NCBI RefSeq assembly: GCF_900220975.1
Contig: NZ_OBQD01000002.1
Location: 432,558 to 479,667, forward strand
Direction: 5' to 3'
Length of the DNA stretch: 47,110 nucleotides
DNA from: Rhizobium subbaraonis
GTDB lineage: Bacteria; Pseudomonadota; Alphaproteobacteria; Rhizobiales; Rhizobiaceae
In this document: positions 18,863-43,556 of the stretch, in pieces
Layout: each line of letters starts with the position of its first letter
How positions within the stretch are numbered: position 1 is the first letter of the stretch
Notes under the pieces: generated by a model
Databases searched by the model: none
What the model was told of the DNA's origin: nothing
The model's input: the letters and a program-made list of their open reading frames with translations, nothing else
Made by a program: the position numbers and the translations under genes

Positions 18863-19648
18863 ATGGAACTCAACGGTGCCCTGCGCCTACATTTCGTGAT
18901 TGGCGATCCGATCGCGCAGGTCAAGTCTCCGGCCGGCGTCACCGACATGCTCCAGGCCCGGGGTCTCAACGCCATCTGCATCCCTGGGCGCGTCGCGCCG
19001 GCGGACCTCGAAACATTCTGGGCCGGTGTCCGCACGCTTGAGAACCTCGACGGCGTCATCATCACCGTGCCGCACAAGATCGCGGCGATCGCCATGGCGG
19101 ACCGGCTCTCCGAGCGAGCTGCCTTCCTCGGCGCCGTCAACACGCTGCGCCGCACCGAGACCGGTTGGGAAGGGGACATGTTCGACGGTATCGGCCATGT
19201 CGCCGCCCTGCGGAAAGCCGGCTGCGTGCTGGAAGGCAAGCGGGCGCTGCTTGCCGGCGCCGGCGGTGCTGGCAGCGCGATCGCGCACGCACTCGTTCTC
19301 GCCGGCGTCGCCGAACTGGCCATACACGAAATGGATGACGCACGGCGCGGAAGCCTGATCGAGCGGCTGTCCTCGCTCGGCCTCGCAAAGATTACGGCGG
19401 GCAGCGCCGATCCGACCGGTTTTGATGTGGTGGTCAACGCGACGCCTGCCGGCATGAAGGAGGGCGACCCGCTGCCCTTCGATGCCGACAAGCTGACACC
19501 CGACATGTTCATTGGTGAAGTGATCACCAAGCCGGCGATCTCGCCCCTCGTCGCCAAAGCGCGCGCGATCGGCTGCAATGCCATTACCGGCACGGACATG
19601 TTCGTCGAAGTGCGCGATCTGATGGTCGACTATCTCTGCAGGACGTGA
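18863..19648 (+). CDS. Shikimate/quinate 5-dehydrogenase family protein (divergent)
   Basis: A 261-residue NAD(P)-dependent dehydrogenase. Family features: VIGDPIAQVKSP at the start (canonical GxPIxHSxSP, with the first serine of the substrate clamp replaced), TVPHK with the catalytic lysine, AVNTLRR, GDMFDGIG holding the catalytic Asp, AGAGGAGSA as nucleotide-binding loop, NATPAGM, and GTDMFVEVRDLM in place of the usual GxGMLVxQ. The altered clamp suggests a substrate other than shikimate, for example a quinate or ring-alcohol analogue. GGAGGAGACGG precedes ATG 18863. It heads a two-gene operon with the TIM-barrel gene and sits just behind tandem operators. Confidence 0.85.
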   Translation: MELNGALRLHFVIGDPIAQVKSPAGVTDMLQARGLNAICIPGRVAPADLETFWAGVRTLENLDGVIITVPHKIAAIAMADRLSERAAFLGAVNTLRRTETGWEGDMFDGIGHVAALRKAGCVLEGKRALLAGAGGAGSAIAHALVLAGVAELAIHEMDDARRGSLIERLSSLGLAKITAGSADPTGFDVVVNATPAGMKEGDPLPFDADKLTPDMFIGEVITKPAISPLVAKARAIGCNAITGTDMFVEVRDLMVDYLCRT

Positions 19649-19658
19649 GGATCCAATC

Positions 19659-20474
19659 ATGAGCCGCAGTTTCGCACTCGCCTTTCTGACCGTTCCCGAT
19701 CTCGGCCCGACCGAGGCGATCCGCGTCGCGGCCGAAACCGGATATGACAGCGTGGGCCTTCGGCTCCTGCCGGCAGCGGCGAGCGGCGAGGGGCCCTATC
19801 CCATTTTGACGGACGCCTCCGTGCTGGCCGAAGCGCGCGCCGCTTTAGACGATACCGGCATTCGCGTCGGCGACGTGGAGATCGTCCGGTTGAAACCGCA
19901 CACGAAGGTCGACGAATTCACAGGCTTTCTCGAATGTGCCGCCGCACTCGGCGCTGCAAACATACTCGTTGCCGGAGACGATCCCGAACCGGCGCGGTTG
20001 ACGCAGACCTTTGGCGCCTTTGCGCAACTGGCCGCACGCTATGGCCTCACCGCCGACCTCGAATTCATGCCCTGGACCGGAGTTCGCAACGCCGCGGAAG
20101 CCAAAGCGATCGTAGAGGGGGCCGGCCAGCCCAACGGCGGCGTGCTTGCGGACGCGCTGCATTGGGACCGTACCGGCGGCAAGGTCGAGGATCTGCAAAG
20201 CCTGCCTGCCAACCGCATTCACTACTTCCAACTCTGCGACGCGCCGGCCGAATACGATCGCAGTGACGCGGGGCTGATCAGCATCGCGCGCGGGGGAAGG
20301 CTGCTGCCGGGCGAGGGTGGCATAGACCTCCCCGCATTTGTTCGCGCCCTGCCTGCGGATGTACCGGTCAGCATCGAGATCGCATCTGCGGACCTCGTGC
20401 ACCGGCTGTCGCCCCGGGACAGGGCCACTCAGGCGCTCGCTGCCGCAAAGGCAACCATAGCGAATACTCTGTGA
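19659..20474 (+). CDS. Sugar-phosphate isomerase/epimerase-type TIM barrel, possible dehydroshikimate dehydratase
   Basis: A 271-residue xylose-isomerase-like (AP_endonuc_2) barrel. Probable metal ligands are in order: E135 (DLEFMPW), D165/H168 (LADALHWD), H188 or D194 (HYFQLCDAP) and E240 (VSIEIAS). This family includes 3-dehydroshikimate dehydratases that make protocatechuate, as well as sugar and inositol isomerases. It follows a shikimate-dehydrogenase-like gene by 10 bases and protocatechuate-pathway genes lie nearby, so dehydration or isomerisation of a ring ketone is the best inference. A hydroxypyruvate or inosose isomerase is the alternative. GAGGATCC precedes the ATG. Confidence 0.72.
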   Translation: MSRSFALAFLTVPDLGPTEAIRVAAETGYDSVGLRLLPAAASGEGPYPILTDASVLAEARAALDDTGIRVGDVEIVRLKPHTKVDEFTGFLECAAALGAANILVAGDDPEPARLTQTFGAFAQLAARYGLTADLEFMPWTGVRNAAEAKAIVEGAGQPNGGVLADALHWDRTGGKVEDLQSLPANRIHYFQLCDAPAEYDRSDAGLISIARGGRLLPGEGGIDLPAFVRALPADVPVSIEIASADLVHRLSPRDRATQALAAAKATIANTL

Positions 20475-20503
20475 ATGATATTCCGATATTGAATATTATT
20501 CCA
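20471..20503. promoter_or_regulatory. Tandem 15-bp palindromes upstream of the flavoprotein operon
   Basis: GTGAATGATATTCCG (20471-20485, overlapping the preceding stop codon) and TTGAATATTATTCCA (20489-20503), again starting 18 bp apart and matching T(T/G)GAATNNNATTC(C/A)A. They lie 127-159 bases upstream of the first flavoprotein start. They are predicted binding sites for the IclR regulator encoded at the end of this gene run. Confidence 0.72.
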
Positions 20504-20547: not shown

Positions 20548-20629
20548 GGAGGAGATACGCGCTTGGAGTTAGCGTCGTGTCGCGATGCTGGCAGAACAGG
20601 CAAGGCCTTGCCTCATGGAGGAGGCGGCA

Positions 20630-22411
20630 ATGAATGCAGTCCCTAAGGCTGGGAATACGGTTGCACCGGCCGCAGCGAACGAGAGCGTCACATGCGACGT
20701 GCTGGTGGTCGGCTCGGGTGCCGGCGGACTGTCCGCAGCCGTCGCGGCCGCGCATTTCGGGCTGAACGTCATCGTAGCCGAGAAGACCGAAATGTTCGGT
20801 GGCACGACGGCCTATTCCGGCGGCTGGCTATGGGTGCCGAACGCCCCGCATGCGCTCGCCGCAGGGAAGGGTGAAGACCCTGAGGGGCCAAAAGCCTATC
20901 TGCGTCACATTCTCGGCAACCGGTATGACGAAGCGATGATCGAAGGCTATCTGAGCGCCGCGCCGCGGATGCTGGACTTCTTCGAGCGCCATACGTGCGT
21001 GCATTTTCTGCCGGGCAGTGGCGTACCGGATTTTCATGGCAACGCGCCAGGTGCCGGAACAGGATGGCGATCCGTCGCCGCCGCCCCCTATGACGGTCGC
21101 AAGCTCGGCCGCCTCATCCAGAGCCTGCGCCCGCCCATCCCCGAGACGACGTTTCTCGGGATGGGCATAGCGTCGGGCGTCGACATGCGCATGTTTCTCA
21201 CCGCCATGCGTTCGCCGTCCGCGTTTGCCTATGTCACGCGACGCGTGCTGAAGCATGCACGCGACCTCCTCTTCCATCGCCGCGCGATGCAACTCGTCAA
21301 CGGTAATGCACTCGCCGCACGCCTGCTGCGTTCGGCAGCCGACAAGGGCGTGACGCTCTGGCCGAACGCGCCCGCCCGCGAACTGATCAGCGACGGCAGC
21401 GGGATAAAAGGGGCGGTGGTCGATACCCCCTCGGGTCGCGTTGCCGTCATTGCGGAACGCGGCGTGGTGCTGGCCACTGGCGGATTTCCTCATGATCCCG
21501 GTCGGCTGCATGATCTCCTGCCGCATGTGCGCGCCGGAACGCGGCATTGCTCTGCCGCGCCGGAGGCCAACACCGGTGACGGGCTGAGACTTGCGGAAAG
21601 CGCCGGCGGGCATGTGTCGGAACGGTTGAGCCACGCCGCAGCCTATGCGCCGGTCTCGCTCGTCCCGCGCCCGGACGGCACCGTCGGCCGCTTTCCGCAC
21701 CTCGTCGAGCGTGGCAAGCCGGGCATCATCGCGGTGATGGCAACAGGAAGGCGCTTCGTTGACGAAGGCGGCCCGTACCATGACTATGTCCGCGAGATGA
21801 TTGCCGCCACGCCAGCAGGCGAACCCGCCGTTTCCTGGCTGATCTGCGACCATCGGTTCCTGCGCCGCTACGGCCTGGGTGCAGTCAAGCCGGCACCGGT
21901 TCCCTTCGGACGCTGGCTGCGCAACGGATACCTGATCAAGGCAACATCCATCACGGCGTTGGCGAGACTCTGCGGCATCGATCCCGCCGGCCTGGAGCGG
22001 ACTGTCACGGACTTCAACCGTCATGCGATAAAGGGAGAGGATCCGCAGTTTCACCGCGGCACGACGCCCTACCAGCGCGCCCAGGGAGATCCCGACCACC
22101 GACCCAACCCCTGCATTGCGCCTATCGTGCGTGCGCCGTTCTATGCGGTGCGTGTCGTTCCGGGAAGCCTCGGCACTTTCGCCGGCGTCGAAACCGATAC
22201 TCGGGCCCGGGTGCTGGACGGCGCCGGTACACCGATCCCGGGGCTCTATGCGGCGGGAAACGATATGAACAGCATCATGTGTGGCAATTATCCGAGCGGC
22301 GGCATCACGCTCGGTCCGGCCATGACCTACGGATTCCTCGCCGCCGAAGCCATTGCAGGGCGCGATGCGGGCGAGACTGAAAGCCACGGGAGGAAAGAGA
22401 ATGTCGTCTGA
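20630..22411 (+). CDS. FAD-dependent dehydrogenase, 3-ketosteroid dehydrogenase/fumarate reductase type (copy 1)
   Basis: A 593-residue flavoprotein. Rossmann motif GSGAGG (28-33) with the acidic end at AEK (about 50-52), FAD loop GGTTAYSGGWLWVP (57-70), mid-protein RRFVDEGGPYHDYV, and C-terminal GLYAAGNDMNSIMCGNYPSGGITLGPAM. The YP-x-G-G segment near the C-terminus is where ketosteroid dehydrogenases carry catalytic Tyr and Gly. It probably introduces a double bond next to a ring ketone. The start at 20630 follows GGAGGAGG; in-frame starts upstream lack it. It overlaps the next flavoprotein gene by 11 bases and has a paralogue there and at 32245. Confidence 0.85.
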   Translation: MNAVPKAGNTVAPAAANESVTCDVLVVGSGAGGLSAAVAAAHFGLNVIVAEKTEMFGGTTAYSGGWLWVPNAPHALAAGKGEDPEGPKAYLRHILGNRYDEAMIEGYLSAAPRMLDFFERHTCVHFLPGSGVPDFHGNAPGAGTGWRSVAAAPYDGRKLGRLIQSLRPPIPETTFLGMGIASGVDMRMFLTAMRSPSAFAYVTRRVLKHARDLLFHRRAMQLVNGNALAARLLRSAADKGVTLWPNAPARELISDGSGIKGAVVDTPSGRVAVIAERGVVLATGGFPHDPGRLHDLLPHVRAGTRHCSAAPEANTGDGLRLAESAGGHVSERLSHAAAYAPVSLVPRPDGTVGRFPHLVERGKPGIIAVMATGRRFVDEGGPYHDYVREMIAATPAGEPAVSWLICDHRFLRRYGLGAVKPAPVPFGRWLRNGYLIKATSITALARLCGIDPAGLERTVTDFNRHAIKGEDPQFHRGTTPYQRAQGDPDHRPNPCIAPIVRAPFYAVRVVPGSLGTFAGVETDTRARVLDGAGTPIPGLYAAGNDMNSIMCGNYPSGGITLGPAMTYGFLAAEAIAGRDAGETESHGRKENVV

Positions 22412-24158
22412 CACTGAGCCGGGAACGATCGAGGAGGTCGACCTGCTGGTCTGCGGAGCGGGTGCAGGCGGCATGACGGCCGCGCTGGTGGCAGCTCTGG
22501 AGGGACTGAACGTCGTTCTCTGCGAAAAGACCGGCCAGGTGGGAGGTACGACATCCACCTCAGGCGGCACGACCTGGGTGCCCGGAACGCATCTGTCCGA
22601 ACTGGCCGGTGTGCCCGACAAAGTGGAGGATGCGCGGGCGTTCCTGGAATCCGTCGTTGCCAATCGCGGCGGCATCCGTCTTCGCGAGGCGTTTCTTGAC
22701 TCCGGCAGGCCGGCGATCGAGGAACTAGACCGCCGCACGGACGTGAAGTTCGTCGCAGCGACCGCCCATCCGGACTATCTCGACGGACCGGGCTCCGCCT
22801 ACGGCGGTAGGGCGCTGGCGCCCGTGATGTTCGACGGACGCCTGCTCGGGCGGGACGATTTCGCCCGTGTACGCCCGCCGCGCCCCGAATTCGTCGGCCT
22901 CGGCGGCATGATGGTCGGCCGGAACGAACTCGACGCGCTGCTTTCACCGCTGCGCTCGATCGGAAATTTCCGCAGTGCCGTGACGATCGTCGGCCGCTAT
23001 CTGCTGGATCGCCTCGGCTACCGGCGGGGAACGCGGCTGCTGATGGGCAATGCTCTGGTGGCGCGGCTGCTCCATAGTCTGCGCAAGGCGAAAGTGCCCA
23101 TCCTCTTCGAAACCGGCGTCACGGAACTGATCGTCGCAGACGGCCGCGTGGTCGGCGCGGTCATGGAAGGTCCGTCCGGCACGCGCCGCATCCGCGCCAG
23201 CAAGGGTGTCGTGCTGGCCACCGGCGGCGTCTGCTGGAACCGGACGATCCGTGAACGGCTCTTCCCCAAGGGCACGCGCGACTATTCGCTTGGCCCGGTC
23301 AGCAACACCGGCGACGGGGCGGACGTTGCAACAGCCGTCGGCGCGGGCTTCGATGACGGCGGCGATAGCCCGGCACTGTGGATGCCGTGCTCGTCCTACC
23401 GGCGCGCGGATGGTTCGCTGGCAGTGTGGCCGCATATCATCCTCGACCGTGCCAAGCCGGGCCTTCTGGCGGTTGACGCATCCGGCAGACGCTTCGTCAA
23501 TGAATCCGATTCCTATCACGACTTCGCGATGGGACAGATCAGAAACAACGCAATCCCCGCGCATCTGATCTGCGACAGTTCCTTCATCCGGCGATACGGG
23601 ATGGGGATGATCCTGCCGGGGGCGCGCAATCTGCGCGCGATGATCAAGGCAGGCTACGTCACCGAGGCAAAGACCCTTCGCGAGCTTGCGGAAAAAATCG
23701 GCTGCGAGGCGCCCGCACTTGCAGCCACGGTCGAAGCCTACAATCACTCGGCTGCGACGGGGGTAGACGAGGCGTTCGGACGCGGGCGCTCCGTCGTCAA
23801 CCGCTTCAACGGCGATCCGGCCATAGGCCCCAACCCCTGCATCGGGCCGATTGGAAACGGGCCGTACTATGCAATGGCAGTCCGCCCCTCCGACCTCGCC
23901 TCGAGCGCCGGCCTCTCCGGTGACGAATTCGGCCGGGTCCTCGACAGGGAAGGAGAGCCGATCGCCGGCCTCTACGCCTGCGGCAACGATCTCGCCTCGA
24001 TTTTTCGAGGCACCTACCCCGGACCGGGAACCACCATCGGCCCGGCGATAGTCTTCGGCTGGCGTGTCGCCAAGCATGCGGCCGGCAAGCTCAAGGACAC
24101 GCCCGACAACAGCGCCGGCGCAGGGACAGATGAAAGGAATTACCGTGCAACGCTATGA
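22401..24158 (+). CDS. FAD-dependent dehydrogenase, 3-ketosteroid dehydrogenase type (copy 2)
   Basis: A 585-residue paralogue of the preceding gene: VDLLVCGAGAGGMTAALVAA at the start, VGGTTSTSGGTTWVPG, GRRFVNESDSYHDF, and GLYACGNDLASIFRGTYPGPGTTIGPA at the end. The aromatic residue seen in the other copies' GGTTA-Y/F-SGG loop is Thr here, which may change substrate or reaction. The start at 22401 follows GGGAGGAAAGAG and lies inside the end of copy 1, so the two are translationally coupled. They may carry out successive desaturations of one ring or form a mixed complex. Confidence 0.85.
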   Translation: MSSDTEPGTIEEVDLLVCGAGAGGMTAALVAALEGLNVVLCEKTGQVGGTTSTSGGTTWVPGTHLSELAGVPDKVEDARAFLESVVANRGGIRLREAFLDSGRPAIEELDRRTDVKFVAATAHPDYLDGPGSAYGGRALAPVMFDGRLLGRDDFARVRPPRPEFVGLGGMMVGRNELDALLSPLRSIGNFRSAVTIVGRYLLDRLGYRRGTRLLMGNALVARLLHSLRKAKVPILFETGVTELIVADGRVVGAVMEGPSGTRRIRASKGVVLATGGVCWNRTIRERLFPKGTRDYSLGPVSNTGDGADVATAVGAGFDDGGDSPALWMPCSSYRRADGSLAVWPHIILDRAKPGLLAVDASGRRFVNESDSYHDFAMGQIRNNAIPAHLICDSSFIRRYGMGMILPGARNLRAMIKAGYVTEAKTLRELAEKIGCEAPALAATVEAYNHSAATGVDEAFGRGRSVVNRFNGDPAIGPNPCIGPIGNGPYYAMAVRPSDLASSAGLSGDEFGRVLDREGEPIAGLYACGNDLASIFRGTYPGPGTTIGPAIVFGWRVAKHAAGKLKDTPDNSAGAGTDERNYRATL

Positions 24159-24756
24159 AATTGCGACACTTTCGACCAGCATGGGGGCCGCACCTAAGGC
24201 CGCGCCCGCAATCGAGGCCTTTGCGAGCGAAGGAAAGGGACGCCTTCTCGGCATATTTTATGCCGACATCGGCGTACTCAACCGCGTGCTGGTCTTCCGC
24301 GGCTTCGAAACCGCAGCGGATTACGATGCGGAGCGCGAGCGCACATTGCGGGCTGCGAACCCCTTCGGCTCGGCCGAATGGCTGACCGGGCTGGAGCTTG
24401 AGGGCTACGCACCATTTCCTTTCCTGCCTCCGGTCGAGACCGGCAGCTTCGGTCCGGCCTACGAGTTTCGCACCTACGTGCTGAAGACCGGCGGACTGGA
24501 GCCGACAATCCGCGCCTGGGAAGCCGCTGTCCCGGCACGCACCGAACTGTCGAAGCTGGCGATCTGCATGTACGGCATCGACGGCAAACCGCGCATGACG
24601 CACATCTGGCCGTTTGCGTCCGTCAACGAGCGCGGCCAGATCCGCGCGGATTCCGTTGCCCAGGGCGTCTGGCCGCCAAAGGGCGGGCCGGACTGGCTGA
24701 CGACGGACATGCGCTCGACCATCGCGTTTCCGACGGCGAACTCCCCGTTGAAATAG
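24145..24756 (+). CDS. NIPSNAP family protein
   Basis: A 203-residue protein with two alpha/beta-barrel (NIPSNAP) repeats: QRYEIATLSTSMGAAPKAAPAIEAF in the first half and YEFRTYVLKTGGLEPTIRAWEAA in the second, ending GPDWLTTDMRSTIAFP. GTG at 24145 follows AAAGGA with good spacing; an in-frame ATG at 24130 is the alternative. It overlaps the flavoprotein stop, so it belongs to the same operon. The biochemical role of bacterial NIPSNAP proteins is mostly unknown; repeated pairing with flavoprotein dehydrogenases here suggests an accessory or isomerase-like role. Confidence 0.82.
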   Translation: MQRYEIATLSTSMGAAPKAAPAIEAFASEGKGRLLGIFYADIGVLNRVLVFRGFETAADYDAERERTLRAANPFGSAEWLTGLELEGYAPFPFLPPVETGSFGPAYEFRTYVLKTGGLEPTIRAWEAAVPARTELSKLAICMYGIDGKPRMTHIWPFASVNERGQIRADSVAQGVWPPKGGPDWLTTDMRSTIAFPTANSPLK

Positions 24757-24829: not shown

Positions 24830-25624
24830 TCAGCCGTGCTTGTGCAGCCCGGGAAAGTATTTGGAGCCGTTGGCCGCGAGGCCGATCTCTTCGGCCGCGG
24901 CGGAAAGATGGGGCGCAAGCTCCGCCATCCGTTCGGGCGTCATGCGAACGGCAGGTGCTGCAATCGACAGGCAACTGATGACCTGTCCGCCGCTTCGCAC
25001 CGGCATTGCCATAGCAGCCATGCCAATGATGTAGCTGTCGACCGAGCGCGCATAGCCTCGCTTGCGCGTCTCGGCGAGAATTTCCAGAAGCTCGGCGATG
25101 GTGCGGGGCGCGCCCGGCCCCGACGGCTTGCTCGGATTGATCAATCCCTGGCGCGAGACCCTCTCCAGCGCCTCCTCATCGCTCATCGAGGCGAGCCATG
25201 CCTGCCCGCCGGCGCTGCTTGCGAGATGGACCACGACACCCTGTTCCTGGCCCGGATCGTAGCGCAAGCCACCCGTCGCCCCCTGTGCCACCGCAACCCA
25301 GATCAAATCGTCGCCGTCGATCACCGAAAGTCGAATCAGCTCGCCGCTCACCTGCGCCAGCCGGTCGAGAATCGGCTGCGCCACGTCGCCGACACCGGTT
25401 CGCCCGAGAAAGCCGACGCCGAGCGCGGCCAGCTTCATCGTCAGCGCATAGTCTCCCTGGTCCTGCACCTGGCGCACATAACCCAGTCTTATCAATTCGT
25501 TGAGCGTACGATGAACGCCGCTTGCCGGCTGGTTCACGCGTTGCGCAATATGGGAAACGGACAGGCCCGCCGGCCGCTCGGCCAGGAACTCGATGATATT
25601 CAGGGACTTCTCAAGGATGCTCAT
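24830..25624 (-). CDS. IclR-family transcriptional regulator of the catabolic island
   Basis: A 264-residue IclR protein: N-terminal winged helix (SILEKSLNIIEFLAERPAGLSVSHIAQRVNQPASGVHRTLNELIRLGYV) and a C-terminal GAF-like ligand domain (DPGQEQGVVVHLASSAGGQAWLA, IGMAAMAMPVRSGGQVISCLSIAAP). The start at 25624 (MSILEKS, with TTGGAACG upstream) is chosen over 25672. It converges on the flavoprotein/NIPSNAP operon. Its own promoter holds one copy of the 15-bp palindrome found in tandem at 18809, 20471 and 41536, which makes it the best candidate regulator of those promoters. The inducer is probably a hydroaromatic or aromatic acid. Confidence 0.9.
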   Translation of the reverse strand: MSILEKSLNIIEFLAERPAGLSVSHIAQRVNQPASGVHRTLNELIRLGYVRQVQDQGDYALTMKLAALGVGFLGRTGVGDVAQPILDRLAQVSGELIRLSVIDGDDLIWVAVAQGATGGLRYDPGQEQGVVVHLASSAGGQAWLASMSDEEALERVSRQGLINPSKPSGPGAPRTIAELLEILAETRKRGYARSVDSYIIGMAAMAMPVRSGGQVISCLSIAAPAVRMTPERMAELAPHLSAAAEEIGLAANGSKYFPGLHKHG

Positions 25625-25637
25625 GGGCGTTCCAATC

Positions 25638-25652
25638 TGGATTATCATTCCA
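25638..25652. promoter_or_regulatory. Predicted IclR autoregulatory site
   Basis: TGGATTATCATTCCA (perfect CTGGA-N7-TCCAG core at 25637-25653), 14 bases upstream of the iclR start. A matching right half (GTTCCA, 25629-25634) occurs 18 bp to the left with no matching left half, so the tandem arrangement is only partly present. Placement close to the start codon fits autorepression. Confidence 0.62.
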
Positions 25653-27681: not shown

Positions 27682-28385
<704 letters not shown>

Positions 28386-36272: not shown

Positions 36273-36273
36273 G

Positions 36274-37041: not shown

Positions 37042-38012
37042 AGCTGGACCCCTTCCTTCAGATCGCGGCGGGCTTCTTGCCGGGGCTTGATCTTCTCGGC
37101 GAGCTTCTGGCCGAGGCCGATCAGGCCGTTCGGCGAATAGACCATCAGCACGATCACAAGCGCCGAGTAGATGATCAGGTAATAGCCTTCGGTGAAACGC
37201 AGCATTTCAGGCAGCAGAATGACGACGGCAGCGCCGAGCATCGGGCCGAAGAAGAAGCCGGAGCCACCCACGACCACCATCAGCAGGAGCTTGAGCGAAT
37301 GGATGAGGGCAAAGCTGCTGGGCTCGATGAACTGCACGAGCGGCGTCTGCAGCGCGCCGGCAAGACCACCGAAAGCAGAGCCGATGGCAAAGGCGAGCAG
37401 CGTCTGGCGACGAATCTTGAGGCCAAGGCTCTCTGCGCGGATCGGGTTCTCGCGCAGCGCCTTGAAGGCCCGGCCCCACGGTGAGCGCAGGATCCACCAC
37501 ATGGCCGCTGCAGCCAGCAGGAAGCAGACCAGCGAGAAATAGTAGAAGGCCAGGTTGCTGTCCGTGCTGATGCCGAAGAAGGTGGGGCGTTCCATGCCGA
37601 CGAGGCCGAACGAACCGCCGGTGATCTCCTCTTCGTTGCGCAGGACCAGGAAGAGCAGCGTGTTGAAGGCGAGCGTCACGAAGGCCAGGAAGTGATGCTG
37701 CACGCGCAGCGCCGGATAGCCGAGCAGGAGACCGACGGCGAAGCTCGACAAGATCGAGATCAGCGCCGCGACGCTCCAGTGGATGCCGTTCAGCGTCATC
37801 AGCGCGGTGATGTAGGCGCCGATGCCCATGAAGCCGGCCTGGGCGAGGCTGACCTGGCCGGCATAGCCGAGCGTCAGGTTCAGGCCCATGGCCGCGATCG
37901 AGAACAAGAGCCAGGAGCAGAGCGTGTAGATGATGTAGTTGCCCTGGCCGATCGGCGCGAAGAGCAGTGCGGCGATGCCGAGTGCGATGAGAATGGGCTG
38001 GTAGCGGGTCAT
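37038..38012 (-). CDS. livM: Branched-chain-type ABC importer, permease LivM
   Basis: A 324-residue membrane protein with the LivM signature LTLGYAGQVSLAQAGFMGIGAYITALM, ALRENPIRAESLGLKI (the EAA-like loop contacting the ATPase) and GGLAGALQTPLVQFIEPSSF. Overlaps its neighbours by 4 bases on both sides, so livH, livM and livG are translationally coupled. Confidence 0.92.
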   Translation of the reverse strand: MTRYQPILIALGIAALLFAPIGQGNYIIYTLCSWLLFSIAAMGLNLTLGYAGQVSLAQAGFMGIGAYITALMTLNGIHWSVAALISILSSFAVGLLLGYPALRVQHHFLAFVTLAFNTLLFLVLRNEEEITGGSFGLVGMERPTFFGISTDSNLAFYYFSLVCFLLAAAAMWWILRSPWGRAFKALRENPIRAESLGLKIRRQTLLAFAIGSAFGGLAGALQTPLVQFIEPSSFALIHSLKLLLMVVVGGSGFFFGPMLGAAVVILLPEMLRFTEGYYLIIYSALVIVLMVYSPNGLIGLGQKLAEKIKPRQEARRDLKEGVQL

Positions 38013-38887
38013 ACGGTTCTCCCTTCCGGGGTGCCGAGCAGCCCCTGCGGGCGCAGCAGGATGATGGCGATAAGCAGCAGGAGCGGCATGGCGGAGCGAT
38101 ACTGGGCGGAGATGTAGACGGCCGAGAGGTTGTCGATCACGCCGATCAGCAGACCGCCGACAAGCGCGCCGCGGATCTGGTTGAAGCCGCCGACGATGGC
38201 GGCGATGAAGGCGACGAGGCCCAGCGTCTCACCGTTCGAAAACTTGGCGAGGTAGATCGGCGAGATCAGTACCGAGGCGATCGTGGCCAGGGCGGCGTTG
38301 ATAAGGAAGGTGTAGAGCACCATGCGCTTGACGTTGACGCCGAGAATTTCGGCCACGGCGGGGTTCTGGGCGCTGGCCTGCATGCAGCGGCCCGTCCGGG
38401 TGCGGTTCAGGAACAGCTGCAGGCCGCCGATCGCCAGCATCGAGACGACCAGATTGCAGATGTCCTGCACGGAAACGCTGGCGCCGGCGACATTGTAGAC
38501 GGTTTGCGGGAAGATCGCCGGAAAGGGCTGGGCCGTGGCGCCGTAGAACTCCTTCACGCTCTCCTTCAGAAGCAGGCCGAGTGCGATGGTGGCGATGACG
38601 AGCGGGAGGGTGCCGTGCGGCAGCATCGGCTCCACGATCAGCCGCTTGAACGCCACGCCAAGGATCAGCAGCGACAGCACCAGTGCCAGCAGGATGGATG
38701 TCCACATCGGCAGGCCGAGAACGGTCATGCCGATGAGCACGAAGAAGGCCGGGAGCATGACGAATTCGCCCTGGGCGAAGTTGATCGTTTGCGACGCCTG
38801 CCAAAGCAGCGTGAAGCCTACGGCGGCGAGCGCATAGATGGAACCGGCGGCGAGGCCGGAAACGAGAATCTGGATAAGCTCGGCCAT
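38009..38887 (-). CDS. livH: Branched-chain-type ABC importer, permease LivH
   Basis: A 292-residue membrane protein: GLAAGSIYALAAVGFTLLWQASQTINFAQGEFVMLPAFF is the LivH hallmark (two contiguous halves), followed by SAQNPAVAEILGVNVKRM and LVAFIAAIVGGFNQIRGALVGGLLIGVIDN. The start at 38887 follows AAGGACGAAACC; a five-codon extension to 38902 is less likely. It pairs with LivM as the translocation channel. Confidence 0.92.
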   Translation of the reverse strand: MAELIQILVSGLAAGSIYALAAVGFTLLWQASQTINFAQGEFVMLPAFFVLIGMTVLGLPMWTSILLALVLSLLILGVAFKRLIVEPMLPHGTLPLVIATIALGLLLKESVKEFYGATAQPFPAIFPQTVYNVAGASVSVQDICNLVVSMLAIGGLQLFLNRTRTGRCMQASAQNPAVAEILGVNVKRMVLYTFLINAALATIASVLISPIYLAKFSNGETLGLVAFIAAIVGGFNQIRGALVGGLLIGVIDNLSAVYISAQYRSAMPLLLLIAIILLRPQGLLGTPEGRTV

Positions 38888-38984
38888 GGTTTCGTCCTTC
38901 AAGGGCTGTTGGTCGGCTCTGCGAATAATGATGAATGGCGGCCGGCGGCGTCATCCGTCGCCGGCCTTGATTAGCGGATCGAGC

Positions 38985-40112
38985 TTAGTTCGGCGGCAGG
39001 ACTGCCTGCACGACCTGCTTGCCGTTTTCGACCTTCACGAAGAAGCTCTCGCGGGACATTTCGCCCGTCTCGTCCCAGCTGACGTCCATCAGCACGCCCG
39101 GGTACTCGGAAGCCTTGAGCGTTAGGCCGTGCAGCTTTTCGGCAATCGCCTTGCTATCCGGGCTGCCGACCATCTCGGTGACGTACTTCAACGTCCAGGC
39201 AGCGGTATAGCCTTTGATGGCGTTATGGTCGGGGGTGTAGTTGTACTTCGTCTTGAAGCGCTCCACCATTTCGGTGAGGGCAGGGATGTTGGCATCCGGG
39301 GTCAACCCGACATGCCCCATGGCGCCGTTGGCAGCATCGCCGGCCAGCTCGATCACCTTGTGCCCGATCAGCGTCGTTTCGCCGATCAGCGGCTTGTCGA
39401 TGCCCTGCTTGCGCGCTTCGCGGAGGAAGCGGGCACTCTCCTCTTCGGTGAAATAAACGAAGATGGCGTCGGCGTCGGAATTCTTCAGCTTCAAAACGTC
39501 GGCGGAGAAGTCGGCTTGCGCCTGCTCGGCCGGCACGTCGACGACGATCGGAATACCAGCCTTCTCCATCTCAGCGACGAATGCCTGATGGCCGCCCTTG
39601 CCGAATTCGGTATTCGCCCAGGCGACGCCCACCTTCTTCACGCCCATGTTCTCGACCATGTACTTGACCATCTTCGGCACGCCCTTCTGCGAGCCGAACG
39701 CGGTCCGGAAGATGTAGGGATTGCCCTTGGCGGTGATCGAAGGCGCCTCGGAGCCGGTGAACTGCGGGATGCCGTACTGCTTTGCAACCAGCATGTTCAC
39801 CACCGTGGACGACGAGAACACCGTGCCGGTGATCGCATAGACGCCATCGTCGATGGCCTTCTGCACCATGGCGCGCGAAACCTGCGGGTCGGTCTGGCTG
39901 TCGTATTCAAGGACCGACACCTGCTCCTTCAGGATGCCGCCCTGGGCATTGATCTCCTCGAAACCCATCTTCACGCCATCGCGGAAGTTCGTTCCGGCCG
40001 CCGCACCGGGGCCGGAGAGTTCGATGATGGAGCCGATCTTGAGTTCTGCGAGTGCGGGTGCGACGCCGAGCGCCATCACGATGGCGGCCGTCGAAAGAAG
40101 TCTTCTGATCAT
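38985..40112 (-). CDS. livK: Branched-chain-type periplasmic binding protein LivK
   Basis: A 375-residue exported binding protein. The signal peptide MIRRLLSTAAIVMALGVAPALA is cleaved before ELKIG. The type I fold shows GSIIELSGPGAAAGTNFRDGVKMGFEEINAQGG (in two parts), VYAITGTVFSSSTVVN, VGVAWANTEFGKGG and NAIKGYTAAWTLKYV. The start at 40112 follows GGGAGGAACGC; a 51-codon extension upstream is not conserved. First gene of the importer operon. It delivers the ligand, here inferred to be a carboxylated ring compound. Confidence 0.9.
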   Translation of the reverse strand: MIRRLLSTAAIVMALGVAPALAELKIGSIIELSGPGAAAGTNFRDGVKMGFEEINAQGGILKEQVSVLEYDSQTDPQVSRAMVQKAIDDGVYAITGTVFSSSTVVNMLVAKQYGIPQFTGSEAPSITAKGNPYIFRTAFGSQKGVPKMVKYMVENMGVKKVGVAWANTEFGKGGHQAFVAEMEKAGIPIVVDVPAEQAQADFSADVLKLKNSDADAIFVYFTEEESARFLREARKQGIDKPLIGETTLIGHKVIELAGDAANGAMGHVGLTPDANIPALTEMVERFKTKYNYTPDHNAIKGYTAAWTLKYVTEMVGSPDSKAIAEKLHGLTLKASEYPGVLMDVSWDETGEMSRESFFVKVENGKQVVQAVLPPN

Positions 40113-40474
40113 TGCGTTCCTCCCAATAATGATCATTGCTGACGATCCGATCGACAGGCCAACGGACTGCTCCTCGGAACGCGGCGACCTTGATCTCCTC
40201 CCGGCGCCGCGATTTCTTTTCAGTCGATACTCCCCACCATCTCCCAGATGGACAACTTGTGTCACTATATCCGCGTAGACGGCTTGTTGACGAATACCGA
40301 TTGGGCTATTTCCATAACATCATGTTAAGTGGCAGCCGCCAGTCCGGCATATCCACACATTGGCATCGAGGCTTCAGGTCTACGGAAATCCCGACCCGAA
40401 AAGCACTCGCCCTGCTCCTCCTTCGATCCTCGAAGAAATCACGCCGCCTGCATCCGGGAAATGGACGATGGTCG
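40113..40474. promoter_or_regulatory. Intergenic region upstream of the importer operon
   Basis: A 362-base gene-free stretch. It holds a perfect 6-3-6 palindrome CCATCT-CCC-AGATGG at 40237-40251 and a self-complementary AATGATCATT at 40128-40137 just upstream of the livK ribosome site. No copy of the T(T/G)GAAT palindrome was found, so the importer seems to have different control from the IclR-linked promoters. No conserved ORF is seen. Confidence 0.45.
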
Positions 40475-41374
40475 CTAAACATTGGACGATTCCTTGCCGG
40501 CAACCTGCCGCAATTCGGCGAGCGACCTTTCAATTCCGGCAGCGATGCCGGTCACGGGCTGGGAGCCCAGAAAACCGGGAACGGGATCGGAAGCAAGATC
40601 GGCGGGAATACGCAACGGATCGCCGCTGATGGTTACATCCGACCATCCGGTCTGACGGCGAAGTTCGGAGACGAAATCTGTCATGTCGGCCGTTTCACCC
40701 GCCATCGTCACGACGGTTGCGCCGGTCAGCGGCACAGACATTGCCGCAGCCAGCATATGCGCAACATCGTCCACGTGGACGAAGCCAACGCGGCCGGAGA
40801 AGCGGATTTCGGCCGGCTCCCTGCGCGCTGCCGCCGCGATGGCGATCGACGGACCGGCCGCGATTCCAGCGCTGATGCCGGGCCCATAGATGATGTACGG
40901 CCGCAAGCCGAGACTGGCAACGCCGTGATCGAGGTTGAAGGCGCGTGCAGCACCTTCGACCGCGAGCTTGGTCGCGCCGTAGATGGTCATCGGGTTCGGA
41001 TGGACCGGATCCTCCGGCCCGAAGACGCCGGCGGTGCTCAGATAGGCGATAGGAAGGCGACCTGCCTTTGCCGCTTCGAACACATTGAGGCTGCCGATCA
41101 GGTTGACGCGTGCTCCAAGCAGCGGATCCCTTGCGCAATCGGCGGTCATGAGGCCGGCGAGATGGACGATTCCGGTGCAACCGCTTGCCGCAGCGATAAC
41201 GGCCGCGGTGTCGGCAATGTCGCCGGTGACGACCTCGATGTCGGGGGACGGAGGAAGGCGATCGGGCTTCGGCGCCAGATCGAACACACGAACGGCGTTA
41301 CCGGCACGACGCAGCGCGGCAATGCTGCGAACGCCGACGAAACCGGTGCCGCCGGTGACGAGTATCCGCCTCAT
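40475..41374 (-). CDS. NAD-dependent epimerase/dehydratase family protein
   Basis: A 299-residue extended SDR: GGTGFVG nucleotide loop at residues 8-14, VHLAGLMTADCARDP, YLSTAGVFGPEDP with the active-site Ser/Thr, YGATKLAVE (Tyr-x-x-x-Lys), and LRPYIIYGPG. These enzymes act on nucleotide sugars or on small hydroxy-ketones. The start at 41374 (MRRILVTGG) is preferred to 41419. It is divergent from the Gfo/Idh gene, with the third tandem operator pair between them, so it is probably part of the same regulon. Substrate unknown. Confidence 0.82.
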   Translation of the reverse strand: MRRILVTGGTGFVGVRSIAALRRAGNAVRVFDLAPKPDRLPPSPDIEVVTGDIADTAAVIAAASGCTGIVHLAGLMTADCARDPLLGARVNLIGSLNVFEAAKAGRLPIAYLSTAGVFGPEDPVHPNPMTIYGATKLAVEGAARAFNLDHGVASLGLRPYIIYGPGISAGIAAGPSIAIAAAARREPAEIRFSGRVGFVHVDDVAHMLAAAMSVPLTGATVVTMAGETADMTDFVSELRRQTGWSDVTISGDPLRIPADLASDPVPGFLGSQPVTGIAAGIERSLAELRQVAGKESSNV

Positions 41375-41535
41375 GCCGGCCAATCCCCTTGCACACGTCC
41401 GGCCTGCATTGCGGCACAAGGCGAACTACGCGCGGCATGAAGTGCACATACCGTTTTCGCCCACACGGCTCCCATTCAGCATTCCTCCCAAAATGGCGCG
41501 GGCGTTCGGCCGGCGCGGATCAATATCGCAAAAAA

Positions 41536-41615: not shown

Positions 41616-42683
41616 ATGACTGGATCAATCGGTGTGGCAGTAATCGGCGCCGGCGCCATCGGACGCACACATATAGACACGCTGGCACGGATGGAGGGCC
41701 AGTACCTTGCGACAATCATCGATCCCGCGCCGCCGGGCGCGGCTCTGGCCCGATCGCTGGGCGTGCCCTGCCTGCCGGACGTAGCCACATTGATCGATGC
41801 GGGAATTGCCGATGCGGCCATTGTCGCCACGCCGAACGAAACCCATTTGCCGATCTCCGAAGCCCTGTTGCAAGCGGGAATCCCCGTGCTACTGGAGAAG
41901 CCGGTGGCCGAGAGCCTCGCTTCCGCCCTTCGGCTGATCGAAATCGCCGAGGAAGGCGGCAGGCCGCTTCTGGTCGGCCATCATCGTCGCCACAACCCGA
42001 TCATCCGCAAGGCGCACGAAGCCATACGAGCCGGCCGGATCGGCAATCTCGTGATGGCCACCGTCACCTGCTCGCTCGCCAAGCCGCCCTCCTATTTCGA
42101 GGCAGCCTGGCGCCGCACGCCGGGGGCAGGGGGGCCGCTACTGATCAACCTCGTCCACGAAATCGATCTGCTTCGGCATTTCTTCGGAGAAGTCGCCACG
42201 GTACAGGCGATCGCCAGCAACGGTCGGCGCGGCTTCGCCGTCGAGGACACCGCTGCCGTGGCGCTGACCTTTGCGAACGGCGGCCTGGCGACCCTGTGCA
42301 TATCGGATGCTGCTACGGGCCCGTGGGCCTGGGATCTGACTGCGGGCGAGAATCCCGTCCGCTTCCCGGCCCATCCGGTGACCGCCCACCACTACGCAGG
42401 AAGCCGGGCAGGGCTGTCCCTCCCGGACCTGACGCTGTGGGAACCGGAGGGCGAGCCGGACTGGACGCGCCGCTTGCAGCCGACGATTCTCGAAGTGGAG
42501 GCGGCTGATCCTTACGAGGAGCAACTCCGGCACTTCGGCAACCTGATCAGGGAAGGCGGAACGCCGCTGGTATCCGCGCGCGACGCAACGGCCAATCTGA
42601 TCGTGCTGGATGCCATTCGCGCGGCAGCCGAGAGCGGATGCGCCGTGGCTGTCGACCTCTCTCCGCTGGACCTGAAGGATTGA
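41616..42683 (+). CDS. Gfo/Idh/MocA-family NAD(P)-dependent oxidoreductase
   Basis: A 355-residue oxidoreductase: VAVIGAGAIGRTHIDTLAR nucleotide loop, VATPNETHLPI, EKPVAES with the catalytic Lys, GHHRRHNPIIR, and LINLVHEIDLLRHFFGE (H-x-x-D). Members oxidise hydroxyls of sugars, inositols and related cyclitols, so a polyhydroxy-cyclohexane substrate would suit the surrounding hydroaromatic genes. CAGGGAGG precedes ATG 41616. It is convergent with a shikimate dehydrogenase homologue (stop 42726). Confidence 0.85.
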   Translation: MTGSIGVAVIGAGAIGRTHIDTLARMEGQYLATIIDPAPPGAALARSLGVPCLPDVATLIDAGIADAAIVATPNETHLPISEALLQAGIPVLLEKPVAESLASALRLIEIAEEGGRPLLVGHHRRHNPIIRKAHEAIRAGRIGNLVMATVTCSLAKPPSYFEAAWRRTPGAGGPLLINLVHEIDLLRHFFGEVATVQAIASNGRRGFAVEDTAAVALTFANGGLATLCISDAATGPWAWDLTAGENPVRFPAHPVTAHHYAGSRAGLSLPDLTLWEPEGEPDWTRRLQPTILEVEAADPYEEQLRHFGNLIREGGTPLVSARDATANLIVLDAIRAAAESGCAVAVDLSPLDLKD

Positions 42684-42725
42684 GCATCTGCGCGGTGCGG
42701 GTGGCAAGCCACAATCAACAGCGCT

Positions 42726-43556
42726 TCAGCCAGCCATCGCCTCGCGCAGGCGCGCCTCATCGACGGGCAGGCCGGTGAAGATGCGCCAGGCGTCAACACC
42801 CTGACCGACAAAAAGTTCGTAGCCGGATATCACCTGCAGACCTTCCGCGGCCGCGTCCTGCAGGAACTGCGTCTCCGGCGGCGTGTACACCGCGTCGAAA
42901 GCCCATTGCGCGCCGACCATGGCGGCGCGCATAAGCGGCGTCCCCTCGTGCCCGACCATGCCGACCGGTGTGCAGTTGACCATCCCGGCCACGCCCCTGG
43001 CACGGACGGCCGCATCCGCGCCCGTTTCCGTCAGCAGAGCGGGACACGCAGCCTTCAGTGCCTGAGCGAGCCCGTCAGCTCGTGGCAGGTCACGATCGAC
43101 GATGCGAATTTCGCGCAGGCCGAGCGCGACAAGGGCAAACGCGATCGCCTTGCCGACCCCTCCCGCGCCGATCATCAGCACCGCACCGGGCAGCGCATCG
43201 CCTCGAATGCGTCGGTAGGCGGCAATGAAACCGGAATAGTCGGTGTTGAAGCCGTGCGGGCCACCCTCATCGAACAGCACAGTATTGACGGCGCCGATGG
43301 CGGCGACGAGCGGATCATCGATCTTGACCCGGGCGGCAGCATCTTCCTTGTAGGGGTAAGTGATGTTCACGCCCCGATAACCGCCAGCGGACACCTCGTT
43401 GAACAGCACGTCGAACGTCTTGCCGTGTTCAGCGGGCATCAGCCGGTCATAGACGACATGGCATCCGTTCTGCGCGGCAGCCAGCACATGCAGACGCGGA
43501 GAAAGCGACTTTGCAATATTGTCGCCCACCAGACCAAGGCGGATCGTTTCAGTCAT
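42726..43556 (-). CDS. Shikimate dehydrogenase (AroE-like, second homologue)
   Basis: A 276-residue protein with the canonical features: LGLVGDNIAKSLSPRLH (S-x-S substrate clamp intact), GVNITYPYK with the catalytic Lys, AVNTVLF, HGFNTDYSGF with the catalytic Asp, IGAGGVGKAIA, NCTPVGM and ISGYELFVGQGVDAWRIFTG. It should oxidise or reduce shikimate or quinate-like substrates. Its setting beside catabolic genes suggests a catabolic paralogue rather than the biosynthetic AroE, which cannot be proven here. The 298 bases upstream (43557-43854) contain no clear complete gene. Confidence 0.88.
   Translation of the reverse strand: MTETIRLGLVGDNIAKSLSPRLHVLAAAQNGCHVVYDRLMPAEHGKTFDVLFNEVSAGGYRGVNITYPYKEDAAARVKIDDPLVAAIGAVNTVLFDEGGPHGFNTDYSGFIAAYRRIRGDALPGAVLMIGAGGVGKAIAFALVALGLREIRIVDRDLPRADGLAQALKAACPALLTETGADAAVRARGVAGMVNCTPVGMVGHEGTPLMRAAMVGAQWAFDAVYTPPETQFLQDAAAEGLQVISGYELFVGQGVDAWRIFTGLPVDEARLREAMAG

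What the first reader, a model, noticed from the sequence alone, without database searches (positions are those of the whole stretch)
18863..43556. Candidate hydroaromatic-acid funnel into the beta-ketoadipate pathway
Seen: within 25 kb there are two shikimate-dehydrogenase homologues, a dehydroshikimate-dehydratase-type barrel, three ketosteroid-dehydrogenase-type flavoproteins, two SDRs, two NIPSNAP proteins, a Gfo/Idh enzyme, an epimerase, pobA, pcaIJF, three regulators and a complete importer. Known: 4-oxocyclohexanecarboxylate can be aromatised to 4-hydroxybenzoate by two flavin desaturases after an alcohol dehydrogenase step (cyclohexanecarboxylate route of Sinomonas/'Corynebacterium' cyclohexanicum), and quinate/shikimate can be turned into protocatechuate. 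Inferred: this island carries out such an oxidative aromatisation and hands 4-hydroxybenzoate and protocatechuate to PobA and the pca genes. The gene combination is not one I know as a described cluster in Rhizobiaceae.
Basis: partly seen in the sequence, partly recalled or inferred. Interest (0 to 1): 0.78.

Follow-up and report, generated by a model that had tools for sequence, protein, structure and literature searches.

The report
Hydroaromatic acid aromatisation gene island
A conserved block of bacterial genes, with dehydrogenases related to the ones that open steroid rings to oxidation, probably turns partly reduced plant-type ring acids back into aromatic acids that the cell can then burn, although no substrate has been tested.

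Summary
In detail: every gene class named is present, including two separate NIPSNAP genes. It is a real, conserved, rearranged cluster. The three flavoproteins fall into three clades of ring-ketone dehydrogenases that keep KstD's catalytic residues but lie apart from two steroid enzymes. Of 32 FAD1-clade rows, 28 have an AroE homologue within 10 kb and 31 the TIM barrel, against 1 and 1 of 33 related flavoproteins outside the clades. quiC, pca or pobA lies beside FAD1 in 14 of 32, in several unlike arrangements; two Shinella genomes read quiC-pcaBGHCD-module A-pcaFJI-pobA-NIPSNAP-AraC. All 17 FAD3-clade rows have NIPSNAP nearby. Best reading: module B (SDR1, SDR2, FAD3, NIPSNAP-B, pobA) oxidises 4-hydroxy/4-oxocyclohexanecarboxylate-type acids to 4-hydroxybenzoate; module A (aroE1, TIM, FAD1, FAD2, NIPSNAP-A) oxidises another hydroaromatic acid towards 3-dehydroshikimate/protocatechuate. 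Corrections: the TIM barrel is not QuiC (a QuiC homologue lies beside pcaHG elsewhere), aroE1 has an altered pocket, no flavoprotein or SDR passes a Chc cut-off, and pob/pca genes are not obligatory. Substrates are inferred. My searches of open-access text listed no description of it.

The parts
18848..19648 (+). aroE1: divergent AroE-family dehydrogenase (module A)
   Evidence: Pfam Shikimate_dh_N; catalytic Lys/Asp kept, Ser17->Val and NTD->MFD relative to the quinate/shikimate dehydrogenase 3jyo
19659..20474 (+). TIM barrel (AP_endonuc_2) with QuiC-type metal ligands (module A)
   Evidence: E, D, H and E positions the same in 37 of 37 TIM rows and 7 of 7 QuiC rows
20585..22411 (+). FAD1: KstD-type ring-ketone dehydrogenase
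   Evidence: NCBIfam PRK06134 827.7 bits over its 747 cut-off; tree
22401..24158 (+). FAD2: KstD-type ring-ketone dehydrogenase, overlaps FAD1
24130..24756 (+). NIPSNAP-A, tandem-domain protein, overlaps the end of FAD2
   Evidence: PF07978, two stretches; sequence
24830..25672 (-). IclR-family regulator beside module A
   Evidence: IclR within 10 kb of FAD1 in 23 of 32 rows
25776..26981 (-). pcaF, 3-oxoadipyl-CoA thiolase
   Evidence: TIGR02430 684 bits over 597
26992..27681 (-). pcaJ
   Evidence: TIGR02428 310 over 243.6
27678..28385 (-). pcaI
   Evidence: TIGR02429 370 over 128.5
28537..29301 (+). pcaR/pobR-type IclR regulator
   Evidence: TIGR02431 322.5 over 284.8
29382..30548 (-). pobA, 4-hydroxybenzoate 3-monooxygenase; the only one in this genome over the cut-off
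   Evidence: TIGR02360 613 bits (N-terminus trimmed) and 648.5 over 538.7; start read
30569..31132 (-). NIPSNAP-B, 20 bases upstream of pobA on the same strand
   Evidence: PF07978; start from the alignment, stop
31228..32127 (-). AraC/HpaA-type regulator, divergent from FAD3
32245..33954 (+). FAD3: KstD-type ring-ketone dehydrogenase (module B)
33951..34730 (+). SDR1, overlaps the stop of FAD3
34738..35466 (+). SDR2; NCBIfam ChcB2 211 bits, under the 350 cut-off
35550..40265 (-). LIV-type ABC importer livFGMHK; binding protein 58% identical to the one beside the genome's pca/quiC genes
40475..41383 (-). epimerase-like NAD(P) enzyme
41634..42683 (+). Gfo/Idh/MocA dehydrogenase
42726..43556 (-). 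aroE2: AroE homologue with the catalytic and substrate residues of quinate/shikimate dehydrogenase
   Evidence: best solved relative 3jyo; residues

Best explanation
A two-module catabolic island that oxidises partly reduced hydroaromatic carboxylic acids to aromatic acids for the beta-ketoadipate pathway. Module B: the importer brings in the acid; SDR1 and SDR2 oxidise a ring hydroxyl (perhaps one per stereoisomer) to the ring ketone; FAD3 removes hydrogen next to that ketone, probably twice; NIPSNAP-B may assist the enone/dienone isomerisation to 4-hydroxybenzoate; PobA makes protocatechuate. Likely substrate type: 4-hydroxy- or 4-oxocyclohexanecarboxylate. Module A: aroE1 oxidises a ring hydroxyl of another hydroaromatic acid, FAD1 and FAD2 desaturate next to the ketone, and the TIM barrel dehydrates or epimerises, giving 3-dehydroshikimate or protocatechuate; dihydroshikimate-like acids would fit. 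aroE2, with the genome's QuiC homologue and possibly its second-cluster type II dehydroquinase, would handle quinate/shikimate itself. Shown: genes, families, catalytic residues, tree, conserved neighbourhoods. Inferred: substrates, order of steps, NIPSNAP role, transport and regulation.
For: (1) Neighbourhood: FAD1 clade, 32 rows (31 loci and the window): aroE within 10 kb in 28, TIM in 31, NIPSNAP in 26, quiC/pca/pobA in 14 (in one of these, L065, only a pcaF that heads a phenylacetate cluster; nine of the 14 share the window's layout or a close form of it); 33 flavoprotein rows outside the clades: 1, 1, 0 and 2. (2) Unlike arrangements: the window type; liv-aroE-(epimerase)-flavoprotein of the FAD2 sister group<>Gfo-IclR-FAD1-NIPSNAP-TIM (L011, L034, L035, L051); quiC-aroE2-TTT importer<>FAD1-TIM (L033, L066; L070 without quiC in the stretch); pcaDCHG-aroE1-TIM-Gfo-FAD1-FAD2-NIPSNAP (L054); pca genes-quiC-IclR-FAD1-TIM-MFS-aroE-AAHS importer (L067); quiC-pcaBGHCD-module A-pcaFJI-pcaR-pobA-NIPSNAP-B-AraC (L024, L030); all three flavoproteins with pobA, pca genes and quiC in one 37.6-kb stretch of Paracoccus sp. 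MA (L012). (3) FAD3 clade, 17 rows: NIPSNAP 17, SDR 14, AraC 14, pobA 6 within 10 kb (7 within 20 kb); Haematobacter repeats pobA-NIPSNAP-AraC<>FAD3; Salipiger has aliA-aliB-badI about 10 kb from FAD3. (4) Chemistry: equivalents of KstD Tyr318, Tyr487 and Gly491 in all 107 non-PDB rows; a His, a Lys and a His near Tyr318 in 74, 74 and 71 of 74 island-type rows. (5) Acid-type importers: AAHS-like MFS (318 and 336 bits, below the 418.6 cut-off), TTT, LIV. (6) pcaHG and a QuiC homologue elsewhere in the genome could complete the route.
Against: No enzyme passes a substrate-specific curated cut-off: ChcC2 504/395/548 of 900, ChcC1 314/300/301 of 1000, ChcB2 160/211 of 350. 18 of 32 FAD1 rows and all 7 rows of the FAD2 sister group have no quiC/pca/pobA within 10 kb; L011 and L051 have none in the stretch held. 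Four FAD1 rows have no AroE homologue in reach: L069 and L071 pair TIM-FAD1 with other ABC importers, L080 has NIPSNAP only, L032 lies at a contig end. The His/Lys/His are not special to the island: 24, 21 and 24 of the 33 rows outside have them too. pob/pca genes cluster with many catabolic genes, so neighbourhood alone cannot fix the product; one row outside the clades (L085) also lies beside pcaHG and an AroE homologue. FAD1-clade enzymes lack Tyr119 (F 26, T 5, M 1 of 32), so their chemistry may differ. NIPSNAP is widespread (35 of 48 genomes) and in most genomes not next to a FAD3-like gene. Rows are related by descent, and I chose the plasmid loci from hit lists that showed annotations, so counts are not independent or blind.
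Confidence: 0.62

Rival explanations
1. Cyclitol catabolism: the Gfo/Idh enzyme, TIM barrel, epimerase and AroE-type dehydrogenases degrade an inositol-like polyol, and the pob/pca genes are neighbours by chance.
For: Gfo/Idh resembles inositol 2-dehydrogenase (123 bits, below the 355 cut-off); a solved relative of the TIM barrel is IolI (E 2e-6).
Against: KstD-type desaturases are not part of inositol routes as I know them; quiC, pca or pobA lies beside FAD1 in several unlike arrangements; AAHS-like or TTT importers stand in place of the LIV importer in some loci; paralogues of TIM and Gfo in this genome sit beside a type II dehydroquinase.
Confidence: 0.13
2. Plain quinate/shikimate catabolism (aroE2, aroE1, TIM as dehydroshikimate dehydratase) plus an unrelated flavoprotein cluster.
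For: aroE2 has the residues of quinate/shikimate dehydrogenase; quiC sits with FAD1-TIM in L033, L066 and L067.
Against: A QuiC homologue (625 bits) sits elsewhere beside pcaHG while the island's TIM scores 35 bits; in L012, L024, L030, L033, L066 and L067 quiC and the TIM gene are both present; the flavoprotein-TIM-aroE link is tight (31 and 28 of 32); aroE1 lost Ser17 and the NTD motif.
Confidence: 0.12
3. Degradation of a steroid, terpenoid or other alicyclic ketone by 3-ketosteroid dehydrogenases.
For: The best solved relatives are 3-ketosteroid dehydrogenases 7p18, 8jbz and 4c3x; catalytic tyrosines conserved.
Against: The 97-row clan that holds the window's enzymes is separated from 7p18 and 8jbz by a branch with SH-aLRT 100 (quick tree; 8jbz is flagged as a long branch); apart from the steroid-dehydrogenase-like flavoproteins, weak 3-beta-HSD similarity of the epimerase and a SdmB-like weak hit, no steroid-degradation family was named among the 48 window proteins scanned with Pfam or the 20 scanned with NCBIfam.
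Confidence: 0.05
4. Cyclohexanecarboxylate aromatisation exactly as in Sinomonas (chc cluster).
For: Same general logic: alcohol dehydrogenase, desaturase, then 4-hydroxybenzoate to protocatechuate; the route is described in passages of PMC9795900.
Against: ChcC1, ChcC2 and ChcB2 cut-offs not met; no cytochrome P450 family among the 48 window proteins scanned with Pfam.
Confidence: 0.08

Closest known systems
Sinomonas cyclohexanicum chc pathway (cyclohexanecarboxylate to 4-hydroxybenzoate; Yamamoto et al. 2021, known here only through passages of PMC9795900 and NCBIfam model names)
   Same: Alcohol dehydrogenase step, flavin desaturation of a ring-keto acid, product 4-hydroxybenzoate for the protocatechuate branch
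   Different: Scores below the NCBIfam Chc cut-offs; no P450 found in the island; NIPSNAP proteins; extra AroE/TIM module linked to quiC
Quinate/shikimate catabolism (quinate/shikimate dehydrogenase, dehydroquinase, QuiC)
   Same: AroE-family dehydrogenases, TIM barrel with QuiC-type metal ligands, direct quiC neighbourhood in several genomes
   Different: Two or three flavin desaturases, divergent aroE1, NIPSNAP; quinate itself needs no desaturase (pathway knowledge, recalled)
3-ketosteroid delta-1-dehydrogenases (4c3x, 8jbz, 7p18)
   Same: Family and catalytic Tyr/Tyr/Gly; presumably dehydrogenation next to a ring ketone
   Different: Separate clades; the conserved His/Lys/His are not found together in the six steroid-side sequences compared; no steroid gene context seen
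Beta-ketoadipate pathway, pca/pob genes of Rhizobiaceae
   Same: pobA, pcaIJF and pcaR present and over their cut-offs
   Different: Here interleaved with the hydroaromatic modules; pcaHG and the QuiC homologue lie elsewhere in this genome but beside the island in two Shinella genomes

Membership tests
Chc cyclohexanecarboxylate aromatisation | ChcC1 4-oxocyclohexanecarboxylate 2-dehydrogenase (NF053676, cut-off 1000) | tested here: not met
   314, 300 and 301 bits for FAD1, FAD2, FAD3
Chc cyclohexanecarboxylate aromatisation | ChcC2 second desaturase (NF053677, cut-off 900) | tested here: not met
   504, 395 and 548 bits
Chc cyclohexanecarboxylate aromatisation | ChcB2 cis-4-hydroxycyclohexanecarboxylate dehydrogenase (NF053701, cut-off 350) | tested here: not met
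   160 and 211 bits for SDR1 and SDR2
Chc cyclohexanecarboxylate aromatisation | P450 ring hydroxylase in the cluster | tested here: not met
   No P450 family among the 48 window proteins scanned with Pfam; the rest of the genome was not searched for one
Quinate/shikimate pathway | QuiC-type 3-dehydroshikimate dehydratase in the island (NF042435, cut-off 1200) | tested here: not met
   TIM barrel 34.8 bits; a 625-bit QuiC homologue, also below this cut-off, is elsewhere in the genome
Quinate/shikimate pathway | Quinate/shikimate dehydrogenase residues (Ser, Thr/Ser, Lys, Asn, Asn-Thr-Asp, Gln) | tested here: met
   aroE2 keeps all, with Ser in place of Thr19; aroE1 keeps only Thr19 (as Ser), Lys73, Asn94 and Asp110; aroE2 is below the curated cut-offs shown
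3-ketosteroid dehydrogenase (mechanism) | Tyr318, Tyr487, Gly491 equivalents (roles recalled) | tested here: met
   All 107 non-PDB rows, the three window enzymes included
3-ketosteroid dehydrogenase (membership) | Groups with known steroid enzymes | tested here: not met
   Branch with SH-aLRT 100 separates them from 7p18 and 8jbz (quick tree, no bootstrap)
Beta-ketoadipate pathway | pobA, pcaI, pcaJ, pcaF over curated cut-offs | tested here: met
   pcaH elsewhere, 355 bits over 296
Hydroaromatic acid aromatisation (function) | Conversion of a ring-keto acid to an aromatic acid | not testable with these tools
   Needs enzyme assay or growth tests

The most novel reading that the evidence does not exclude
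An undescribed re-aromatisation route for reduced hydroaromatic acids (dihydroshikimate / dihydroxycyclohexanecarboxylate type): a neofunctionalised AroE oxidises the ring hydroxyl, a KstD-type flavoprotein restores the double bond, and NIPSNAP proteins act as ring-enone/dienone isomerases, which would give bacterial NIPSNAP proteins their first pathway role that I know of.
Probability: 0.25. Interest if true: 0.75.

Novelty: new variant of a known kind. Interest (0 to 1): 0.58.

Why it matters
It would show that soil and plant-associated bacteria carry a route, often on plasmids, to recover aromatic acids from hydroaromatic acids that have been partly reduced (for instance in fermented plant material), joining two known kinds of chemistry (steroid-type ring desaturation and quinate catabolism). 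It assigns a testable role to a large set of flavoproteins now annotated mostly as 'FAD-dependent oxidoreductase', to a divergent AroE subfamily annotated in several records as shikimate dehydrogenase or ThiF-family protein, and to NIPSNAP proteins.

Tried and rejected
Considered and set aside: (a) the TIM barrel as the genome's dehydroshikimate dehydratase, because a QuiC homologue lies beside pcaHG; (b) a general NIPSNAP-KstD partnership: PF07978 is in 35 of 48 genomes (27 chosen because they had a FAD3-like hit, 21 without) and, comparing coordinates by eye, lies within about 5 kb of a FAD3-like hit in only 7 of 28 genomes, so the link belongs to the island's clades; (c) steroid catabolism (tree); (d) RNA elements and tRNAs: none found in the window.

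Led nowhere: literature searches for the aerobic hydroaromatic route or bacterial NIPSNAP enzymes gave only background; I saw only the first 20 of 93 and 15 of 4,321 papers, as listings. One paper was looked into, passages only (PMC9795900). A structure model was planned and dropped.

How the rows were chosen: 20 loci came from the one genome-contig scan with FAD1; L038 among them is not in any of the three clades. From the plasmid hits I fetched 14 of 25 listed for FAD3 (157 records matched) and 8 of 25 listed for FAD1 (74 records matched), having seen the annotations in the list. Unnamed-genome stretches were taken around the hits. Some loci give two or three rows. The neighbour labels come from tblastn with bit-score floors that I set; pcaB, pcaC, pcaD and pcaG of the query set were named by eye from L046, with pcaH tested and the same genes annotated in L012 (the pcaB homologue there only as 'lyase family protein').

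Full report
Observation. The window lies at G000:C59:432558-479667 of a 6.58-Mb genome. Both NIPSNAP genes are real: one overlaps the end of FAD2 (24130-24756 +), the other (30569-31132 -) lies 20 bases upstream of pobA on the minus strand. pobA, pcaF, pcaI and pcaJ exceed their curated cut-offs, and this pobA is the only one in the genome over the cut-off.

What the flavoproteins are. All three match FAD_binding_2 over its full length. FAD1 exceeds the NCBIfam PRK06134 cut-off (827.7 of 747); FAD2 (PRK12843, 699 of 758) and FAD3 (PRK06134, 715 of 747) fall short. ChcC2, the second desaturase of cyclohexanecarboxylate aromatisation, scores 504, 395 and 548 against 900, and ChcC1 about 300 against 1000. 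In a quick maximum-likelihood tree of 109 rows FAD1, FAD2 and FAD3 fall into three clades (32, 18 and 17 rows) inside a clan of 97 rows that is divided from a 12-row group with the steroid enzymes 7p18 and 8jbz by a branch with SH-aLRT 100; 8jbz is flagged as a long branch. The residues aligned with Tyr318, Tyr487 and Gly491 of KstD are present in all 107 non-PDB rows; their roles in KstD are recalled, not looked up. The FAD1 clade alone lacks the Tyr119 equivalent (F 26, T 5, M 1 of 32; Tyr in the other 75 rows). A His, a Lys and another His close to Tyr318 (H341, K347, H368 in FAD3) occur in 74, 74 and 71 of 74 rows of the three clades and the FAD2 sister group; they also occur in 24, 21 and 24 of the 33 rows outside. 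Of six steroid-side sequences compared (two solved, four placed there by the tree) none has the Lys or the second His and two have the first His. I read them as a possible carboxylate clamp; this is inference.

Neighbourhoods. I compared 31 other FAD1-clade loci and the window, 17 FAD3-clade rows, 18 FAD2 rows and 7 rows of a sister group of FAD2, with 33 flavoprotein rows outside these clades as a comparison set. Within 10 kb, FAD1 rows have an AroE homologue in 28 of 32, the TIM barrel in 31, NIPSNAP in 26, IclR in 23, and quiC, pca or pobA genes in 14; one of the 14 (L065) has only a pcaF that heads a phenylacetate cluster. The comparison rows have 1, 1, 0, 0 and 2 of 33. FAD2 rows have AroE in 18 of 18 and quiC/pca/pobA in 11 of 18; the FAD2 sister group has AroE in 6 of 7 and quiC/pca/pobA in 0 of 7. 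FAD3 rows have NIPSNAP in 17 of 17, SDR in 14, AraC in 14, pobA in 6 (7 within 20 kb). A Fisher test for aroE, FAD1 against comparison rows, gives 5e-13, but rows are related by descent and the plasmid loci were picked by me, so this is descriptive. The mean flank searched was 18.6, 17.1 and 16.7 kb for FAD1, FAD3 and comparison rows. One comparison row (L085) does lie beside pcaHG and an AroE homologue, and another (L058) near pcaIJ-like genes in a locus with fahA and maiA.

The association survives rearrangement. Eleven of the 31 other FAD1 loci have the window's order aroE1-TIM-FAD1-FAD2-NIPSNAP-A-IclR, two of them (L023, L031) with an AAHS-like importer between TIM and FAD1; L064 has the same enzymes with an SDR inserted and IclR further off. 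L011, L034, L035 and L051 read liv-aroE-(epimerase)-flavoprotein of the FAD2 sister group<>Gfo-IclR-FAD1-NIPSNAP-TIM. Antarctobacter (L066) and a Roseivivax MAG (L033, importer named by eye) read quiC-aroE2-TTT importer-LysR<>FAD1-TIM, and Sagittula (L070) the same without quiC in the stretch. Paracoccus aminovorans has pca genes, quiC, IclR-FAD1-TIM, an MFS, an AroE homologue annotated ThiF, and an AAHS importer together. Two Shinella genomes (L024, L030) run quiC-pcaBGHCD-module A-pcaFJI-pcaR-pobA-NIPSNAP-B-AraC. Paracoccus sp. MA holds all three flavoproteins, both NIPSNAPs, pobA, pca genes and quiC within 37.6 kb (L012). L051 is a single 19.5-kb stretch with three flavoproteins, both NIPSNAPs, both SDRs, Gfo, TIM, the regulators and most of the importer but no pob or pca genes, so these are partners, not obligatory parts. 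Module B occurs without module A in the stretches held in, for example, Haematobacter (pobA-NIPSNAP-AraC<>FAD3), Salipiger (about 10 kb from aliA-aliB-badI) and Paraburkholderia (SDR-FAD3-NIPSNAP-SDR-AAHS importer). Ochrobactrum (L022) joins module A to another version of module B: AAHS-like importer, FAD3, a short NIPSNAP and pobA. Of the eight window-type loci that also hold pobA and tandem NIPSNAP-B (one a copy), five have pcaFJI-pcaR in between (L019, L020, L024, L030, L036) and three do not (L021, L025 and its copy L027).

Exceptions. Four FAD1 rows lack an AroE homologue in reach: L069 (Phyllobacterium) and L071 (Bosea) pair TIM and FAD1 with other ABC importers, L080 has only NIPSNAP, and L032 begins at a contig end. 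FAD1 may therefore serve more than one route.

AroE and TIM residues. aroE2 has the catalytic and substrate residues of the solved quinate/shikimate dehydrogenase 3jyo, with Ser for Thr19. All aroE1-type rows keep Lys73, Asn94 and Asp110, but Ser17 is Val (Phe in two rows), and in most window-type loci the Asn-Thr-Asp motif is Met-Phe-Asp and the C-terminal Gln is Val. This points to a substrate other than quinate or shikimate. The TIM barrel keeps the Glu, Asp, His and Glu ligand positions of QuiC in 37 of 37 rows (Gln in 33, His in 4), so a metal-dependent dehydratase or epimerase is likely, but its QuiC score is 34.8 bits. The genome's QuiC homologue (625 bits, itself below the 1200-bit cut-off) lies at C59:123162-125021, about 326 kb away, beside pcaH (355 over 296 bits), a pcaG homologue and genes that I read by eye as pcaD, pcaC and pcaB. 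A second cluster at C59:93000-112000 has paralogues of TIM (43%) and Gfo (44%) beside a type II dehydroquinase (178 bits over 170).

Mechanism. Module B: import, SDR oxidation of a ring hydroxyl, desaturation next to the ketone by FAD3, isomerisation to 4-hydroxybenzoate (perhaps helped by NIPSNAP-B, which by spacing shares an operon with pobA, as in Haematobacter), PobA, then the pca genes. Module A: aroE1 oxidation, desaturation by FAD1/FAD2, dehydration or epimerisation by TIM, entering at 3-dehydroshikimate or protocatechuate. Dihydroshikimate and dihydroxycyclohexanecarboxylate are attractive substrates because I recall that lactobacilli reduce quinate to such acids; I did not look this up. 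Families, residues and conservation are shown; substrates, order and the NIPSNAP role are inferred.

Known or new. The aerobic route cyclohexanecarboxylate -> 4-hydroxy -> 4-oxo -> 4-hydroxybenzoate by two desaturases is described in passages I read of PMC9795900, citing Yamamoto et al. 2021, which I did not read. The island works along similar lines but fails the Chc membership tests. Searches of the open-access library (listings only) showed no title or abstract describing this gene combination; subscription papers are mostly not held, so this is weak evidence of novelty. I rate it a new variant of a known kind.

Noticed in passing
L045 (G000:C59:93000-112000), 3046-11329: A paralogous cluster in the same genome: TIM (43%), Gfo (44%), type II dehydroquinase, and by eye an AKR, amino-acid-type ABC genes and a dimeric alpha/beta-barrel-like protein, with an epimerase (43%), an SDR and a third TIM barrel (35%).
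   Followed up: partly
L047 (G000:C52:52000-71500), 2545-18216: Another cluster with a NIPSNAP gene and, about 8.3 kb away, a KstD-like flavoprotein, together with a LIV importer and dehydrogenase-complex-like E1 and E2 genes (by eye).
   Followed up: no
L058 3481-4140 and L063 7800-8480: Near two FAD3-like flavoproteins outside the FAD3 clade, an EthD-annotated protein is found where the island has NIPSNAP.
   Followed up: partly
L016 16167-19746: In a Roseomonas plasmid, electron-transfer-flavoprotein-like genes lie directly upstream of a FAD3-clade gene: a hint at the electron acceptor.
   Followed up: no
L014 1491-16698: Salipiger plasmid carries aliA-aliB-badI (cyclohexanecarboxylate via CoA) about 10 kb from FAD3, so two routes for alicyclic acids may sit side by side.
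   Followed up: partly
window 16735-18622: minC, a MinD-like ATPase and minE lie directly upstream of the island.
   Followed up: no
window 20585-22411 and FAD1 clade: The FAD1 clade alone has lost the Tyr119 equivalent of KstD (0 of 32 Tyr; the other 75 rows all Tyr).
   Followed up: partly
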